Positions 21,796 through 55,302 of a stretch of 64,000 nucleotides of DNA are shown here, piece by piece (the first letter of the stretch is position 1; each line of letters begins with the position of its first letter). The notes under the pieces were generated by a model. The model saw only the letters and a list, made by a program, of their open reading frames with translations, made no database searches and was not told the origin of the DNA. Location of the stretch: contig OU015322.1 in assembly GCA_907163225.1 (NCBI GenBank), positions 2,690,060-2,754,059 of the forward strand, in the 5' to 3' direction. A program made the translations under genes and the position numbers. The stretch is from an uncultured Rhodocyclaceae bacterium. GTDB taxonomy: Bacteria; Pseudomonadota; Gammaproteobacteria; Burkholderiales; Rhodocyclaceae.

Positions 21796-22146
21796 ATGAT
21801 TTTTTCTCGAATGTCTTTCATGGTTGCGGCAATCGCTTCTGTTTTGGCCAGCGGCACGGTTGGCGCAGTTGAGCCGGTTGCCTACATCAACGGCGCTTCC
21901 AATCATATGGTTGGTTCAACCGCGGATCTCAACGGCGGCAATTTTCCGGGCAAAAGCACCATTACGCTGGCGATTACCAGCCCCAAGGGTGTGACCCATT
22001 CCGATTTGGTGGTTGCTGATGCTGACGGCAAGGTCAGTGCCAGCGTTGCGCTGGACGAGGCCGGTGCCTACAAGGTCAAGGCCAACGATTCGCTCGGCAA
22101 GACGCTGGCTAGCACCATCGTTGTCGTGCGACCAGCTCAGCGTTAA
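21796..22146 (+). CDS. Small exported Ig-like protein
   Basis: A 116-residue protein with a signal peptide (hydrophobic MSFMVAAIASVLASG, likely cut after TVGA). The mature part is about 90 residues of alternating strands (TITLAITSPKG, SDLVVADADGKV, GAYKVKANDSLG), which suggests one Ig-like or Big-type beta-sandwich. A very strong AGGAGGG ribosome site precedes it. It is the first gene of a four-gene plus-strand cluster that ends with a PEP-CTERM cohesin-like protein. I do not recognise a specific family. Confidence 0.75.
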   Translation: MIFSRMSFMVAAIASVLASGTVGAVEPVAYINGASNHMVGSTADLNGGNFPGKSTITLAITSPKGVTHSDLVVADADGKVSASVALDEAGAYKVKANDSLGKTLASTIVVVRPAQR

Positions 22147-22166: not shown

Positions 22167-23279
22167 ATGTTTTCCCGGCACTTTCCTTTACCTGCAACTG
22201 TTCTCGCGTTGTCGGTGCTGCTTTTACCTTGCGCTGCATCGGCTGATACCGTTGCGTCGTCATTTCAACCCGATATCCTTTTCCACTCGCTCCGCCATGG
22301 CGCCAGCCAGATTTATCTGGCCAATAGCCATACGGGTGAGATGAAACGGCTACGCGAGAGTGCCAATGAAGATATTGGTGCAATGTGGTCTCCGGATGGC
22401 AAAAAAATTGCATTTGTTTCGCGGGCCAATGGCAACAGCGATATCTATGTGATTGATGCGGATGGAGCCAACCCGCAGCGTCTGACCGATCACCCCGCCT
22501 ACGATGGTGGCGTGCTCTGGTCACCCGATGGAAGCAAGCTGGCGTTTACGTCAGGGCGTTCAGGGTCATCCAAGCTCTACACCATTAATGCTGACGGTAG
22601 CGGCCTAAAGCGGTTGACCACCAGTGAGGCTCAGGAGGATGAAGCGAATCACGCCTGGTCGCCAGACGGGAAGCAGCTTGCTTTCGTAACCATCACGACC
22701 AATCGCCAACTTTCGGTGTGGGTGACCAATAGCAACGGCGGCACTCCTGAGCAATTGACCAAACCAGCGAACGCCAATGCGACTCAACCAGTGTGGTCGC
22801 CGGATGGTAGCGAACTTGCCTACGTGGAGTCCAAGAAAGGCCGGTCAAATCTCAGAATCATGACCCTTGCCAGCAAGGCTGTACGCAACCTGACGGACGA
22901 TAACTTTCGTAGCAGCCGGCCGACATGGACGCCGGATGGTTCGCATGTTGTTTTCGAGAGCCTTCGTGCCGGTGGCGCCAGAACCGATTTGTTCATGATT
23001 CCATCGAACGGTGGCGAGGCCGTCAATTTGACCACGACGCCAGCGAATGAAGATATGGACGGAACGGTTTCCGGCAACGGGCAACAACTTGCCTATGTCA
23101 GCTTTATTGAAGGAAAGCCGGCACAGCTCTTTTCGCTCAACCTTGGAAATAAGGCTCTAAAGCAGCTAACCCAATCAGGCGCACTGGAGTTTCAGCCGGT
23201 CTGGCGCCCAGTTACAAAAGCCAAGAGCTTGGCTTACCGCAGTGCTGAAATTCCCGCAGCGATTGCTTCACTTCGTTGA
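22167..23279 (+). CDS. Exported TolB-like beta-propeller (PD40 repeats)
   Basis: A 370-residue protein with a signal peptide (FPLPATVLALSVLLLPCAASA) and about six WD40-like PD40 repeats. The recurring WSPDG motif appears as MWSPDGKKIAF, LWSPDGSKLAF, AWSPDGKQLAF, VWSPDGSELAY and TWTPDGSHVVF. It lacks the N-terminal TolB domain, so it is not TolB itself. Such propellers in the periplasm or on the surface usually mediate protein contacts or ligand binding. It starts 20 bp after the small Ig-like gene, so an operon is likely. Confidence 0.85.
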   Translation: MFSRHFPLPATVLALSVLLLPCAASADTVASSFQPDILFHSLRHGASQIYLANSHTGEMKRLRESANEDIGAMWSPDGKKIAFVSRANGNSDIYVIDADGANPQRLTDHPAYDGGVLWSPDGSKLAFTSGRSGSSKLYTINADGSGLKRLTTSEAQEDEANHAWSPDGKQLAFVTITTNRQLSVWVTNSNGGTPEQLTKPANANATQPVWSPDGSELAYVESKKGRSNLRIMTLASKAVRNLTDDNFRSSRPTWTPDGSHVVFESLRAGGARTDLFMIPSNGGEAVNLTTTPANEDMDGTVSGNGQQLAYVSFIEGKPAQLFSLNLGNKALKQLTQSGALEFQPVWRPVTKAKSLAYRSAEIPAAIASLR

Positions 23280-23326: not shown

Positions 23327-25006
23327 ATGAATGCTACTTTTACACGAGATCGCCTGACTAAACTGACGGTGGCCGTTGGTTTGGCGCTATCAGCTACTGC
23401 TTCCTGGTCCGGGAGCGCGGTATTTTCCGGCAATGCCGGCTTCACCCAGGGATCAACGGATGGCGTCGTTATTAACGGCGGCAAAGTTGTACTTGGTGCG
23501 GTCGGTTCAACCTTTGACCTGCTTTGGGTGGCCAACGCCGGCGAAGATACCGTCTCAAAAATCGATACGAAGAACAACGTTGAGATTGCTCGCTACCGTA
23601 CTTGGTTTGACAGTGGTCTTCATAGCGGCTACTCAGGACCTGCTCCGTCTCGTACGACAGTCGATAGTGATGGCAATGTGTTTGTGGCCAATCGTCACTT
23701 TGATGGAAAACCTGCCCGACTGATGAAAATTTTGGCAACGGGTGGTGTTGACCGGAATGGCAACGGCGTAATCGACACCTCTACTGGCCCTACGGACATC
23801 AAGGCATTGGTAGACTCCAACGGCAACGACGCGCTGGATGCCGCCGAATTGTCCGATGAGCGTGTGGCATGGTCCGTTCCAGTCGGCGATCCAGGTGGTC
23901 TTGGTCGTGCAGCCTGTATTGGCACTGACGGAAATGTCTGGGTTGGTTTGTATTCCCTAAACCAGTTCTACAAGGTCAACGGCACTACCGGTGCAATCAT
24001 GTCCGGTCCGCATAGTGTTCCATGGACGCCTTATGGCTGTGCAGTGGATCGAAATGGCATTTTGTGGAGTGCGACCCTGGGCAGCGGCATTGGGCGGCTC
24101 GATACAAATAACCCGACCACACCGCAGTTTGTCGACGTTGGTAGCACCTACGGGATCGCGATTGGCAACGGCAAAGTGTACTTGGGCGGGAATTGCGCTT
24201 ATTACGAGTACGACCCAGCAAACGGTTCAACCCTCTATCGCAATGGTCAATGTGGCTCCGGGATTTCGGTCGATGGTGCCGGGGATATCGTGACGGGCTA
24301 TCAGCAGGCAGCCAAGTACAGCAAGGTCGATGGTTCTGAGAAATGGGTCAATTCGACACATGCCGCAACCTATGCAGTCGGTGTTGTTGTTGATGGCGAC
24401 AACAATGTCTGGCAAGTGGACTTTAGCTCGAATCGGGTAACCAAGTTTGATGGAGCGACCGGCAATTTCATCGCAGCTCTGCCCGTTGGCGATCAGCCCT
24501 ATACCTACAGTGATGCAACGGGTATTGCCGCACGCAACCAAACGTCACACACAGGCTTCTGGTCGATTATTCTCGACGGCGGCCCCAATGCAAAGTGGTA
24601 CAAGGTCTGCTGGAGCGCCGTTGTGCCCAACGGTGCTGCAGTTGGTGCTGAAAGCCGCGCTGACAACGTGCAAGGTAATCTCGCTAACCAGAATTTTGCT
24701 GCACGAGGCAACTGTACGCCACTGTTGCAGGAAGGTCGTTACCTTGAGTTGCGCGCAAAGCTCGCCGCAAACGTTGATGACGTAACACCGGAGTTGCTGC
24801 AGATCGCTGCGCAGACTCGGCCTTGCGACGTTGATAACGACAACGACGTTGATTCTCTGGATATCGCTGCTATTCGTGCAAATCTGAACAAGCCTGCAAG
24901 TGGCTTTGGTGACCCGCGTGATGCCGACAGCAACAGTGTGATAAATGTCCTGGACGTGCGTGCGTGTACGCAGCAATGTACGCGTGCAGGCTGTGCAGCG
25001 AACTGA
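23327..25006 (+). CDS. Exported NHL/Vgb-like propeller with C-terminal dockerin
   Basis: A 559-residue protein. The ATG at 23327 has a TTTGGAG ribosome site and begins a clear signal peptide (LTVAVGLALSATASWSG). Residues of about 40-420 are propeller-like repeats (LLWVANAGEDTVSKID, GNVWVGLYSLNQFYKV, NNVWQVDFSSNRVTKFDG), like the streptogramin-lyase family. Residues of about 495-559 form a dockerin type I-like module. Its two calcium loops, DVDNDNDVDSLD and DADSNSVINVLD, have acidic or Asn ligands at positions 1, 3, 5, 9 and 12, and a helix follows each. The neighbouring gene encodes a cohesin-like domain. Confidence 0.82.
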   Translation: MNATFTRDRLTKLTVAVGLALSATASWSGSAVFSGNAGFTQGSTDGVVINGGKVVLGAVGSTFDLLWVANAGEDTVSKIDTKNNVEIARYRTWFDSGLHSGYSGPAPSRTTVDSDGNVFVANRHFDGKPARLMKILATGGVDRNGNGVIDTSTGPTDIKALVDSNGNDALDAAELSDERVAWSVPVGDPGGLGRAACIGTDGNVWVGLYSLNQFYKVNGTTGAIMSGPHSVPWTPYGCAVDRNGILWSATLGSGIGRLDTNNPTTPQFVDVGSTYGIAIGNGKVYLGGNCAYYEYDPANGSTLYRNGQCGSGISVDGAGDIVTGYQQAAKYSKVDGSEKWVNSTHAATYAVGVVVDGDNNVWQVDFSSNRVTKFDGATGNFIAALPVGDQPYTYSDATGIAARNQTSHTGFWSIILDGGPNAKWYKVCWSAVVPNGAAVGAESRADNVQGNLANQNFAARGNCTPLLQEGRYLELRAKLAANVDDVTPELLQIAAQTRPCDVDNDNDVDSLDIAAIRANLNKPASGFGDPRDADSNSVINVLDVRACTQQCTRAGCAAN

Positions 25007-25036
25007 ACATAATTACTGAAATTAGGGGAAATAGAA

Positions 25037-25645
25037 ATGCGTAAACTAATATTGGCCAGCCTTTTGGCTGGGCTGTGTGCGGCACAGAACGCCCAAGCAT
25101 TTTCGCTGGAGTTTACTCCGGCCTCGCAGTCCATGACCGTTGGCAGTTCGCAGACTTTCGATCTGTGGGTCAAAGGCTTGGGCTCGGAGTTGATTTCCGG
25201 CTATGACCTTTCGGTGGGGTACAACTCATCAATTCTTGGCCTCGGTGCGGTCACTTATTCAAATAAGCTGAATAACGGTGATGTCAACGAAAGTATCTTT
25301 GTTCTAACGCCAGGGGCTGGTTCGGTGAACTTGTTTGAGGTCAGTTTGCTCTCCGATGCACAATTGGCGGGTCAAGGAGATTTCAAACTGTTCTCGATTA
25401 CCTTTGCCGGCTTGGCGGCTGGCACGTCAGACATTACCCTGACCTCGAACGGCATCTCTGGGCATTCTGAACTAGATGCGTTTGGCGATCTGGTCCCGCT
25501 CGCCTTGACCCCCGACTCCATCCTGAATGCTACTGCCACAATTCAGGGCAACGGTGGTCAGAACAACGTGCCCGAGCCTTCGGCGCTGGCACTGCTTGGT
25601 CTCGGCCTCTTAGGGGTGATGGCTTCACGGCGCCGCAAGCTGTAA
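25037..25645 (+). CDS. Cohesin-like domain protein with PEP-CTERM anchor
   Basis: A 202-residue exported protein. The signal peptide (LILASLLAGLCAAQNAQA) is followed by a beta-sandwich of about 140 residues with cohesin features: an early MTVGSSQTFDLWVKG strand, GYDLSVGYNSSILGLG, and LFSITFAGLAAGTSDITL. The C-terminus is a PEP-CTERM sorting signal, VPEPSALALLGLGLLG, then a basic SRRRKL. Such proteins are cut by exosortase and placed on the surface or in the extracellular matrix. It starts 30 bp after the dockerin gene, with AGGGGAA upstream. A terminator follows. Confidence 0.82.
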   Translation: MRKLILASLLAGLCAAQNAQAFSLEFTPASQSMTVGSSQTFDLWVKGLGSELISGYDLSVGYNSSILGLGAVTYSNKLNNGDVNESIFVLTPGAGSVNLFEVSLLSDAQLAGQGDFKLFSITFAGLAAGTSDITLTSNGISGHSELDAFGDLVPLALTPDSILNATATIQGNGGQNNVPEPSALALLGLGLLGVMASRRRKL

Positions 25646-54618: not shown

Positions 54619-55302
54619 ATGAAAATGCATCGTTTTTTCAGGTCGACCGCAGCAGCCGTCATGGTTGCAGGTCTTTTCGCCAGTTCTGTAGCGCAAGCCG
54701 ATGATCTGGTGATGTCTCAGGACATCAATTCACTCGGATTTTTCGTTAACGTTAACAAAAACGGCACCGTCATCAATGAGAGTGTGACCGCCGGTTTGTT
54801 CAACGTCTCGAACCAGACCACCGGCAGCACCTTCCTGGCTTTCTGCTATGAGTTGCTTCAGGGCGTTAGCGGTGGCGTACTGAATCCTCCGGGCCTTCCG
54901 TTTGCCAAGGATGCAGCGACTGCTACCGTGCAAAAGCTGTTTAACCAGAGTTTTTCTGGCCTGGATCTGAACGATGCATCGAAAGTTGCCGGCTTCCAGA
55001 TCGCGCTGTGGGAAGCCACGGATGACAACAACCTTGCGAGCGGCAACTATAACGGCTGGGTCGGCGACCCAGCGATTGATGGCGCCGCTGCACTGGGCTT
55101 CGCTACTCAGTATCTCTCCGCACTGGACAACAATGCGCCGGAAACCGGGAAATACGACCTGACCGTTTGGACGAACCCGACCAGCCAGGACATCGTTCAG
55201 GCAGCAGTCCAGACGGGTAACAATGTTCCGGAGCCGACGACCTCGTTGTTGGCCGCACTCGGCCTGGCCGGGTTGGCGCTGGCGCGTCGTCGCAAGGCAT
55301 AA
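54619..55302 (+). CDS. PEP-CTERM protein with thioester-domain-like motifs
   Basis: A 227-residue exported protein: signal peptide (STAAAVMVAGLFASSVAQA), a mature domain of about 170 residues and a PEP-CTERM signal (VPEPTTSLLAALGLAGLAL, then ARRRKA). The domain has FLAFCYELLQG near residue 75 and KVAGFQIALWEATDD near 125. This FC-x-E and QxALW pairing is the pattern of Cys-Gln thioester domains that can bind host or matrix amines covalently. The motif reading is an inference. A GTAGGAG ribosome site precedes it. Part of the signal peptide is encoded by a dispersed element. Confidence 0.82.
   Translation: MKMHRFFRSTAAAVMVAGLFASSVAQADDLVMSQDINSLGFFVNVNKNGTVINESVTAGLFNVSNQTTGSTFLAFCYELLQGVSGGVLNPPGLPFAKDAATATVQKLFNQSFSGLDLNDASKVAGFQIALWEATDDNNLASGNYNGWVGDPAIDGAAALGFATQYLSALDNNAPETGKYDLTVWTNPTSQDIVQAAVQTGNNVPEPTTSLLAALGLAGLALARRRKA
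54626..54658 (+). repeat. Dispersed element in a signal peptide
   Basis: Plus-oriented copy (TTTTTTCAGGTCGACCGCAG then CAGC) in frame, encoding RFFRSTAAAV of the PEP-CTERM protein's signal peptide. Confidence 0.7.

What the first reader, a model, noticed from the sequence alone, without database searches (positions are those of the whole stretch)
23327..25645. Adjacent dockerin and cohesin-like genes: a possible non-cellulosomal cohesin-dockerin surface complex
A propeller protein ends in two dockerin-type calcium loops (DVDNDNDVDSLD and DADSNSVINVLD). The next gene, 30 bp on, encodes a secreted beta-sandwich with cohesin features and a PEP-CTERM anchor. Together they suggest that the anchored cohesin displays the propeller on the cell surface or in the matrix. 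Cohesins and dockerins are known outside cellulosomes, but a paired exosortase-anchored unit with two propellers and a small Ig-like protein in one operon is unusual to me.
Basis: partly seen in the sequence, partly recalled or inferred. Interest (0 to 1): 0.82.

Follow-up and report, generated by a model that had tools for sequence, protein, structure and literature searches.

The report
Swappable surface dock for secreted proteins
This bacterium carries, side by side, a secreted protein ending in a molecular plug (dockerin) and a probable surface-anchored socket for it (cohesin); in relatives the socket is sometimes a different, unrelated-looking protein and the plug differs with it, which hints at an undescribed second kind of socket.

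Summary

The four genes form a patchy, conserved unit. In genome scans of an order and a class, 20 genomes carry this dockerin at E<=1.8e-9; 19 have an anchored partner beside it: 18 cohesin (one marginal), 1 another family. Cargo varies.

That other family, here called GDK, fills the cohesin slot in 10 of 43 propeller-dockerin copies. It is a predicted jelly roll without detectable similarity to cohesin beyond the tail. On the propeller tree the label changes at least 5 times; dockerin residues differ with it, largely at known recognition positions. 9 of 11 GDK genomes show no cohesin.

Best reading: a one-to-one dock for surface display (new variant of a known kind), plus a candidate non-cohesin dockerin receptor. 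Binding and display are inferred.

The parts
21796..22146 (+). Small Ig-like protein (116 aa) with a signal-like N-terminus, first gene of the unit
   Evidence: Big_1-like, below cut-off; homologue upstream of the propeller-dockerin gene in 21 of 33 cohesin-type copies (2 of the 12 misses at contig edges) and 10 of 10 GDK-type copies
22167..23279 (+). PD40/TolB-like beta-propeller (370 aa)
   Evidence: PD40 4.2e-49; homologue upstream in 32 of 33 cohesin-type copies (the miss is at a contig edge) and 10 of 10 GDK-type copies
23327..25006 (+). Vgb/NHL-like beta-propeller with C-terminal dockerin (559 aa; ATG at 23327)
   Evidence: Vgb_lyase 5.6e-5 (22.5 bits, below its cut-off of 50) and Dockerin_1 18.8 bits; dockerin-bearing homologues at 37-47% identity
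24824..24997 (+). Dockerin module, residues 500-557, four conserved Cys in the family
   Evidence: alignments A4/A7; pLDDT about 91 in the model
24827..24862 (+). Calcium loop 1, DVDNDNDVDSLD
   Evidence: sequence; D at loop positions 1 and 12 invariant in 44 rows
24920..24955 (+). Calcium loop 2, DADSNSVINVLD
   Evidence: sequence; D at loop positions 1 and 12 invariant in 44 rows
25037..25645 (+). Cohesin protein with signal-like N-terminus (read by eye) and PEP-CTERM tail (202 aa)
25100..25555 (+). Cohesin domain (approximate limits)
25568..25636 (+). PEP-CTERM sorting signal
   Evidence: PF07589 34 bits, residues 178-200; genome has 2 exosortases and 38 PEP-CTERM matches

Best explanation
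The unit is a one-to-one surface dock. The fourth gene makes a cohesin that is secreted and, through its PEP-CTERM tail, handed to an exosortase and fixed at the cell surface or in the extracellular matrix. The third gene makes a secreted propeller whose C-terminal, calcium-binding dockerin plugs into that cohesin, so the propeller is displayed. The Ig-like protein and the PD40 propeller are co-inherited partners whose role is unknown; adhesion or matrix building is the likeliest. Shown by computation: domain identities, conserved gene neighbourhood, adjacency of dockerin and anchored partner, and co-variation of dockerin residues with partner family. Inferred: binding, calcium dependence, sorting and display.
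For: Families. Fold of the window's cohesin. Class scan of 369 genomes: 13 have the dockerin at E<=1.8e-9; 11 of these are new and none of them had supplied rows to the profiles; 11 of 11 have a cohesin-like ORF beside it, one marginal. Order scan of 399 genomes: dockerin in 9, strong cohesin (E<=3.3e-24) in 8, 7 shared and adjacent in all 7; hypergeometric p 9e-13, which is too small because those 7 genomes supplied rows to the cohesin profile, though each scores 56.8 bits or more when its own rows are left out. Propeller loci: 43 of 43 dockerin-bearing copies have one anchored partner (33 cohesin, 10 GDK); 0 of 15 copies without dockerin have either (Fisher 3e-14, rows being related). Partner-linked residues lie largely at recognition positions (positions named in PMC3413522 and PMC8063739, passages). 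Single-chain model pTM 0.75 against 0.50-0.54 expected, for own errors of 1-2 A, if the dockerin were unplaced. Two exosortases and 38 PEP-CTERM matches.
Against: No binding data. Model contacts could not be inspected and the pTM argument rests on assumed error values. G254 has a strong cohesin without this dockerin; G113 has the dockerin without a partner in the 16 kb seen, where its gene runs off the contig. The cohesin-like ORF in G743 scores only 14.4 bits and that in G536 37.5. In G479 the two genes are about 790 bp apart, in L061 the cohesin lies about 950 bp upstream of the unit. Adjacency alone could be inherited linkage. 11 of 33 cohesin rows do not reach E<=0.01 for the PEP-CTERM motif.
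Confidence: 0.85

Rival explanations
1. The GDK family that replaces the cohesin in 10 of 43 propeller copies is not a receptor. It is another surface protein that happens to occupy the slot, and the dockerin in those lineages binds something else or nothing.
For: The GDK model is a jelly roll resembling a Bdellovibrio protein and carbohydrate-binding modules, so it could bind sugar. Two GDK genomes carry a weak cohesin hit (31-33 bits), though beside a separate weak dockerin of their own. One GDK genome has two further dockerins of the cohesin-linked kind, and near one of them a partial cohesin-like piece.
Against: 9 of 11 GDK genomes show no cohesin at E<=1e-3, while the same profile finds each of its 35 source loci at 56.8 bits or more with that locus left out. 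GDK is absent from 26 of 26 other genomes searched. A GDK gene follows a dockerin on a protein that is not a propeller (L007). Dockerin residues differ by partner.
Confidence: 0.35
2. Dockerin residues changed with the partner only because the 3' end of the propeller gene and the next gene were exchanged together by recombination; the correlation is linkage, not recognition.
For: The two lie side by side on DNA; only 5 independent contrasts exist on supported branches, so the sign test cannot go below 0.0625.
Against: The same residue pattern occurs on an unrelated cargo (L007). The signal is concentrated: 6 of the 9 top columns are positions 10, 17 or 18. In L026 and L061 the cohesin gene lies upstream of the unit.
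Confidence: 0.25
3. The dockerin-like module is a calcium-binding stabiliser and the cohesin-like sandwich an independent matrix protein; they share an operon but do not touch.
For: Both Pfam scores are below cut-off in the window; EF-hand models match 25 of 48 rows; binding is untested.
Against: Dockerin_1 matches 37 of 48 rows; adjacency across unrelated cargo; partner-linked residues at recognition positions.
Confidence: 0.1

Closest known systems
Cellulosomal type I/II cohesin-dockerin pairs
   Same: Same two module families by profile and predicted cohesin fold; two calcium loops
   Different: One cohesin and one dockerin match in this genome, no multi-cohesin scaffoldin, PEP-CTERM anchor
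Non-cellulosomal cohesins and dockerins (Archaeoglobus fulgidus cohesin 2xdh; ANME archaea)
   Different: Here the receptor carries PEP-CTERM and sits in a recurrent operon with two propellers; some ANME proteins have several cohesins or S-layer domains
PEP-CTERM/exosortase matrix proteins such as floc-associated PepA
   Same: Same sorting signal; a PEP-CTERM gene pepA is involved in floc formation (PMC9850573, abstract)
   Different: Similarity to the floc_PepA model is below its cut-off (43.4 against 80 bits for the window's cohesin; 25.8-39.6 bits for 7 GDK proteins); dockerin docking is not mentioned in that abstract
Jelly-roll modules such as Bdellovibrio Bd1399 and CBM61 (for GDK)

Membership tests
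Dockerin (type I-like) | Two duplicated calcium-binding loop-helix segments | tested here: met
   Loops at 501-512 and 532-543; D at positions 1 and 12 of both loops invariant in 44 rows; two helices, pLDDT about 91
Dockerin (type I-like) | Match to the dockerin profile | tested here: met
   Met by the family, not by the window alone: 18.8 bits, or 21.6 for the excised module, against 22.9; 37 of 48 relatives at E<=0.01; family profile hits solved dockerins
Dockerin (type I-like) | Calcium-dependent binding to a cohesin | not testable with these tools
   Only an indirect pTM argument
Cohesin | Cohesin fold | tested here: met
Cohesin | Sequence profile match | tested here: met
   Met by the family, not by the window alone (19.6 against 24.1 bits): 14 of 33 members at E<=0.01; PDB cohesins are the top profile hits
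Cellulosome | Scaffoldin with several cohesins plus several dockerin-bearing enzymes | tested here: not met
   One cohesin and one dockerin match in the whole genome at E<=1
PEP-CTERM/exosortase substrate | PEP-CTERM tail and an exosortase in the genome | tested here: met
   34 bits against 20.7; two exosortases over cut-off
GDK as a cohesin | Sequence or profile similarity to cohesin | tested here: not met
   hhalign of the two alignments reports only the PEP-CTERM tail; 7 of the 11 members were scanned against Pfam and none of the 7 hits Cohesin at E<=1
GDK as a cohesin | Cohesin fold | tested here: inconclusive

The most novel reading that the evidence does not exclude
GDK is a second, non-cohesin class of bacterial dockerin receptor. 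It and cohesin have replaced one another at least five times in the same operon slot, each time together with a switch of the dockerin's recognition residues (in the GDK class Pro at position 10 and Lys or Leu instead of Arg at position 14 of repeat II, Ser at position 17 of repeat I), so that plug and socket form exchangeable specificity classes.
Probability: 0.55. Interest if true: 0.78.

Novelty: new variant of a known kind. Interest (0 to 1): 0.62.

Why it matters
Cohesins and dockerins outside cellulosomes have been listed for years without a known function (so stated in PMC5244752, passage). Here they form a compact, recurrent system with an evident logic: one anchored socket, one secreted plug, varied cargo. 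It links two literatures, exosortase anchoring and dockerin docking, that did not meet in the papers searched (PEP-CTERM with dockerin: none; exosortase with dockerin: one paper). The repeated change of socket family offers a natural experiment on how dockerin specificity evolves and, if GDK binds, a new orthogonal pair for protein display.

Tried and rejected
Cellulosome: rejected, one cohesin and one dockerin match in the genome.

Searching genome contigs with the cohesin alone found no relative; the propeller alignment worked instead.

GDK as a diverged cohesin: no profile similarity beyond the tail; no cohesin among the 50 entries shown in the structural comparison, which does not exclude a distant relation. 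The GDK body is not wholly unmatched: floc_PepA, below cut-off, reaches into it in some of the 7 members scanned.

GDK matches in 33 further order genomes were judged mainly PEP-CTERM tail matches and not counted. All are under 37 bits; several start inside the body (model positions 132, 141, 172, 176, 178, 186, 190) and were not looked at singly.

Weak dockerins in G486, G535 and G474 (E 4e-7 to 6e-7) have no cohesin hit nearby and were left out of the adjacency count. G113 was kept as a miss. G055:C44 (2e-7) was not followed. The further dockerins (C68, C98) and cohesins (C31, C35) of G032 lie on short contigs or at contig ends and were not resolved.

Circularity, checked late: A4, A5 and A6 contain rows from genomes later searched with them. 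So 'strong cohesin' in the 7 shared order genomes and in the 7 cohesin-type genomes, and GDK in 11 of 11 genomes, are matches by construction. Leave-one-locus-out scores for cohesin are 56.8 bits or more in 35 of 35 loci, 89.7-114.8 for those 7 control loci. No leave-one-out was run for GDK or dockerin.

Rows dropped from propeller counts: L001-L003 are the window itself and L005 is the same contig stretch as L032; L009 and L063 hold only part of a propeller. Several loci without dockerin (L045, L049, L052, L060, L062) are short or cut by contig ends, so 'no partner' is weaker there.

Position 11 of the dockerin repeats, a classic recognition position, shows almost no partner signal (excess 0.05 and 0.09), and the top column, position 14 of repeat II, is not on the classic list.

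Many loci are metagenome bins; misbinning was not tested. Two of the five GDK models had low confidence (mean pLDDT 39.8 and 32.4); only the best was used.

A sigma-54-like site upstream of the unit is somewhat enriched (13 of 40 copies at 9 or more of 12 matches, 6% in single-letter shuffles): suggestive only.

Plasmid search of the dockerin-cohesin stretch: no match. 'dockerin' with 'non-cohesin': two engineering papers (listing only).

Full report
OBSERVATION. The window holds four co-directional genes: Ig-like 21796-22146, PD40 propeller 22167-23279, propeller with a C-terminal module 23327-25006, and an anchored beta-sandwich 25037-25645. Pfam gives Dockerin_1 18.8 bits (cut-off 22.9), Cohesin 19.6 bits (cut-off 24.1) and PEP-CTERM 34.0 bits (cut-off 20.7). 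Each of the first two is the only match of its family in the 3.46 Mb genome. The genome has two exosortases and 38 PEP-CTERM matches. Two sub-threshold matches to binding partners in adjacent genes are already suggestive; the relatives settle the identities.

CONSERVATION. In 200 genomes of the order, 7 match the propeller-dockerin protein; the match is full-length in the window's own and two others, and both others have all four genes in the same order. A wider search found 52 loci. HMMs built on three seeds and iterated over all six-frame ORFs mapped the neighbourhoods. Counting the window, L004 and the 52 loci, there are 43 propeller-dockerin copies: 33 have a cohesin by the unit and 10 do not. 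In L026 and L061 the cohesin lies upstream of the unit. An Ig-like gene precedes 21 of 33 cohesin-type and 10 of 10 other copies; a PD40 propeller precedes 32 of 33 and 10 of 10. By record titles the loci are mostly Beta- and Gammaproteobacteria.

THE OTHER PARTNER. All 10 copies without cohesin have, right after the dockerin gene, a different PEP-CTERM protein of about 240 aa, usually with a GDKLFD-like motif, called GDK here. Of its 11 known members 7 were scanned. The PEP-CTERM motif passes its Pfam cut-off in 6 of the 7 and no other Pfam family does. In NCBIfam the only model over its cut-off is the PEP-CTERM domain (6 of 7); below-cut-off matches such as floc_PepA reach into the body in some. 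hhalign of the GDK and cohesin alignments reports only the tail. Fifteen propeller copies without dockerin have neither partner in the sequence held (Fisher 3e-14; rows are related and some contigs short). An eleventh GDK gene follows a dockerin on a protein that is not a propeller (L007; Big_1-like below cut-off).

INDEPENDENCE. On a tree of 58 propeller domains without the dockerin columns, the GDK label needs 6 changes (bootstrap trees 6-7; at least 5 forced by well-supported branches). Some branches are long, the window's among them. Dockerin residues split by partner (33 cohesin, 11 GDK rows). Column 45 is Pro in 11 of 11 GDK and 0 of 33 cohesin rows. Column 49 is Arg in 33 of 33 cohesin rows and Lys (10) or Leu (1) in GDK rows. 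Column 20 is Ser in 11 of 11 against 2 of 33. Column 53 is Pro in 10 of 11 against 0 of 33. Counted from the first loop residue these are positions 10, 14, 17 and 18. Positions 10, 11, 17, 18 and 22 (list recalled, then found in print) are putative recognition residues (PMC3413522, passages), and 10 and 11 specificity determinants (PMC8063739, passages). Mean excess information there is 0.37 against 0.11 elsewhere in the two repeats (Mann-Whitney p 0.001), and 6 of the 9 top columns are positions 10, 17 or 18. Position 11 shows almost no signal, position 14 is not on the list, and neither columns nor rows are independent. In 5 of 5 independent contrasts on supported branches columns 45 and 49 change with the partner; the sign test cannot go below 0.0625 there.

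GENOME-WIDE TESTS. Among 399 order genomes the dockerin family occurs in 9 and strong cohesin in 8, with weak hits in four more. Seven are shared and adjacent in all 7. The hypergeometric p of 9e-13 is too small, because those 7 genomes supplied rows to the cohesin profile; left out in turn, each still scores 56.8 bits or more, and the four found first by neighbourhood scored 48-93 bits with a profile that lacked them. Of the other two dockerin genomes, G028 has GDK adjacent and G113 nothing in 16 kb, where its gene runs off the contig. G254 has a cohesin without this dockerin. The cleaner test is the class scan: of 369 genomes 16 match, 13 at E<=1.8e-9; the 11 new ones had supplied nothing to the profiles, and 11 of 11 have a cohesin-like ORF by the dockerin gene (9 at 70 bits or more, G536 37.5, G743 14.4; in G479 about 790 bp away). 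Together 20 genomes carry the well-scored dockerin and 19 have a partner beside it. In 18 genomes reached directly, cohesin is absent at E<=1e-3 in 9 of 11 GDK genomes and weak in two (31-33 bits); the 7 cohesin-type genomes score 110 bits or more by construction and 89.7-114.8 with their own rows left out. GDK is absent from 26 of 26 other genomes. Against strict exclusivity: the two weak cohesins sit by their own weak dockerin, and L025's genome has two further dockerins with the cohesin-linked pattern, one downstream of a partial cohesin-like piece.

CARGO. Eight other dockerin proteins were scanned. Five have another domain over cut-off: calcineurin-like phosphoesterase (G340), GDSL lipase (G015), IgGFc_binding (G310, G638), PKD/cadherin-like repeats (G016); all five lie beside a cohesin. 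So the dock looks generic and the propeller one cargo among several.

MECHANISM. The anchored cohesin would be exported and processed by an exosortase (established role of PEP-CTERM, recalled), the dockerin loops bind calcium and plug into it, and the cargo is held at the surface or in the matrix. A PEP-CTERM gene is tied to floc formation in one studied strain (PMC9850573, abstract), which makes adhesion or matrix building plausible. Binding, sorting and role are inferred.

NOVELTY. Non-cellulosomal cohesins and dockerins are known (PMC9012536 and PMC5244752, passages). PEP-CTERM with dockerin found no paper and exosortase with dockerin one, in an open-licence library only; the 2009 survey of non-cellulosomal modules was not available. 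The window's pair is a new variant of a known kind. A GDK receptor, if real, would be more than that. The late check on circularity did not require a change of odds.

Noticed in passing
L007:298-1698 and 1769-2506: A dockerin on a non-propeller secreted protein with a Big_1-like domain, followed by a GDK gene: the dockerin-GDK pairing outside the propeller unit.
   Followed up: yes
L149:6828-16993: Two dockerin proteins (613 and 2458 aa) flank a single cohesin gene, as if one socket served two plugs.
   Followed up: partly
L187 and L188 (genomes of L044 and L056): A second, weakly scoring dockerin at the end of a large protein that looks like a C25 peptidase by eye (label recalled, not searched), directly followed by a cohesin-like PEP-CTERM ORF; these genomes seem to hold two separate plug-socket pairs.
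   Followed up: partly
L186 and L189 (genome of L025): Two dockerins, identical over the module, with the cohesin-linked residue pattern in a GDK genome; a partial cohesin-like piece with a PEP-CTERM tail lies upstream in L186, and L189 has a tail-like stretch upstream.
   Followed up: partly
window 23750-23860: The propeller itself holds two further calcium-loop-like motifs (DRNGNGVID and DSNGNDALD), also present in the two relatives aligned.
   Followed up: no
window about 55225-55293: Another PEP-CTERM tail in the window (G000:C1:2745284-2745352), away from the unit.
   Followed up: no
upstream of the unit in 40 copies (window about 21668): Sigma-54-like -24/-12 sites are somewhat enriched; 6 of the 13 better ones lie 90-93 bases before the first gene. 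RpoN control is reported for a PEP-CTERM gene in PMC9850573 (abstract).
   Followed up: partly
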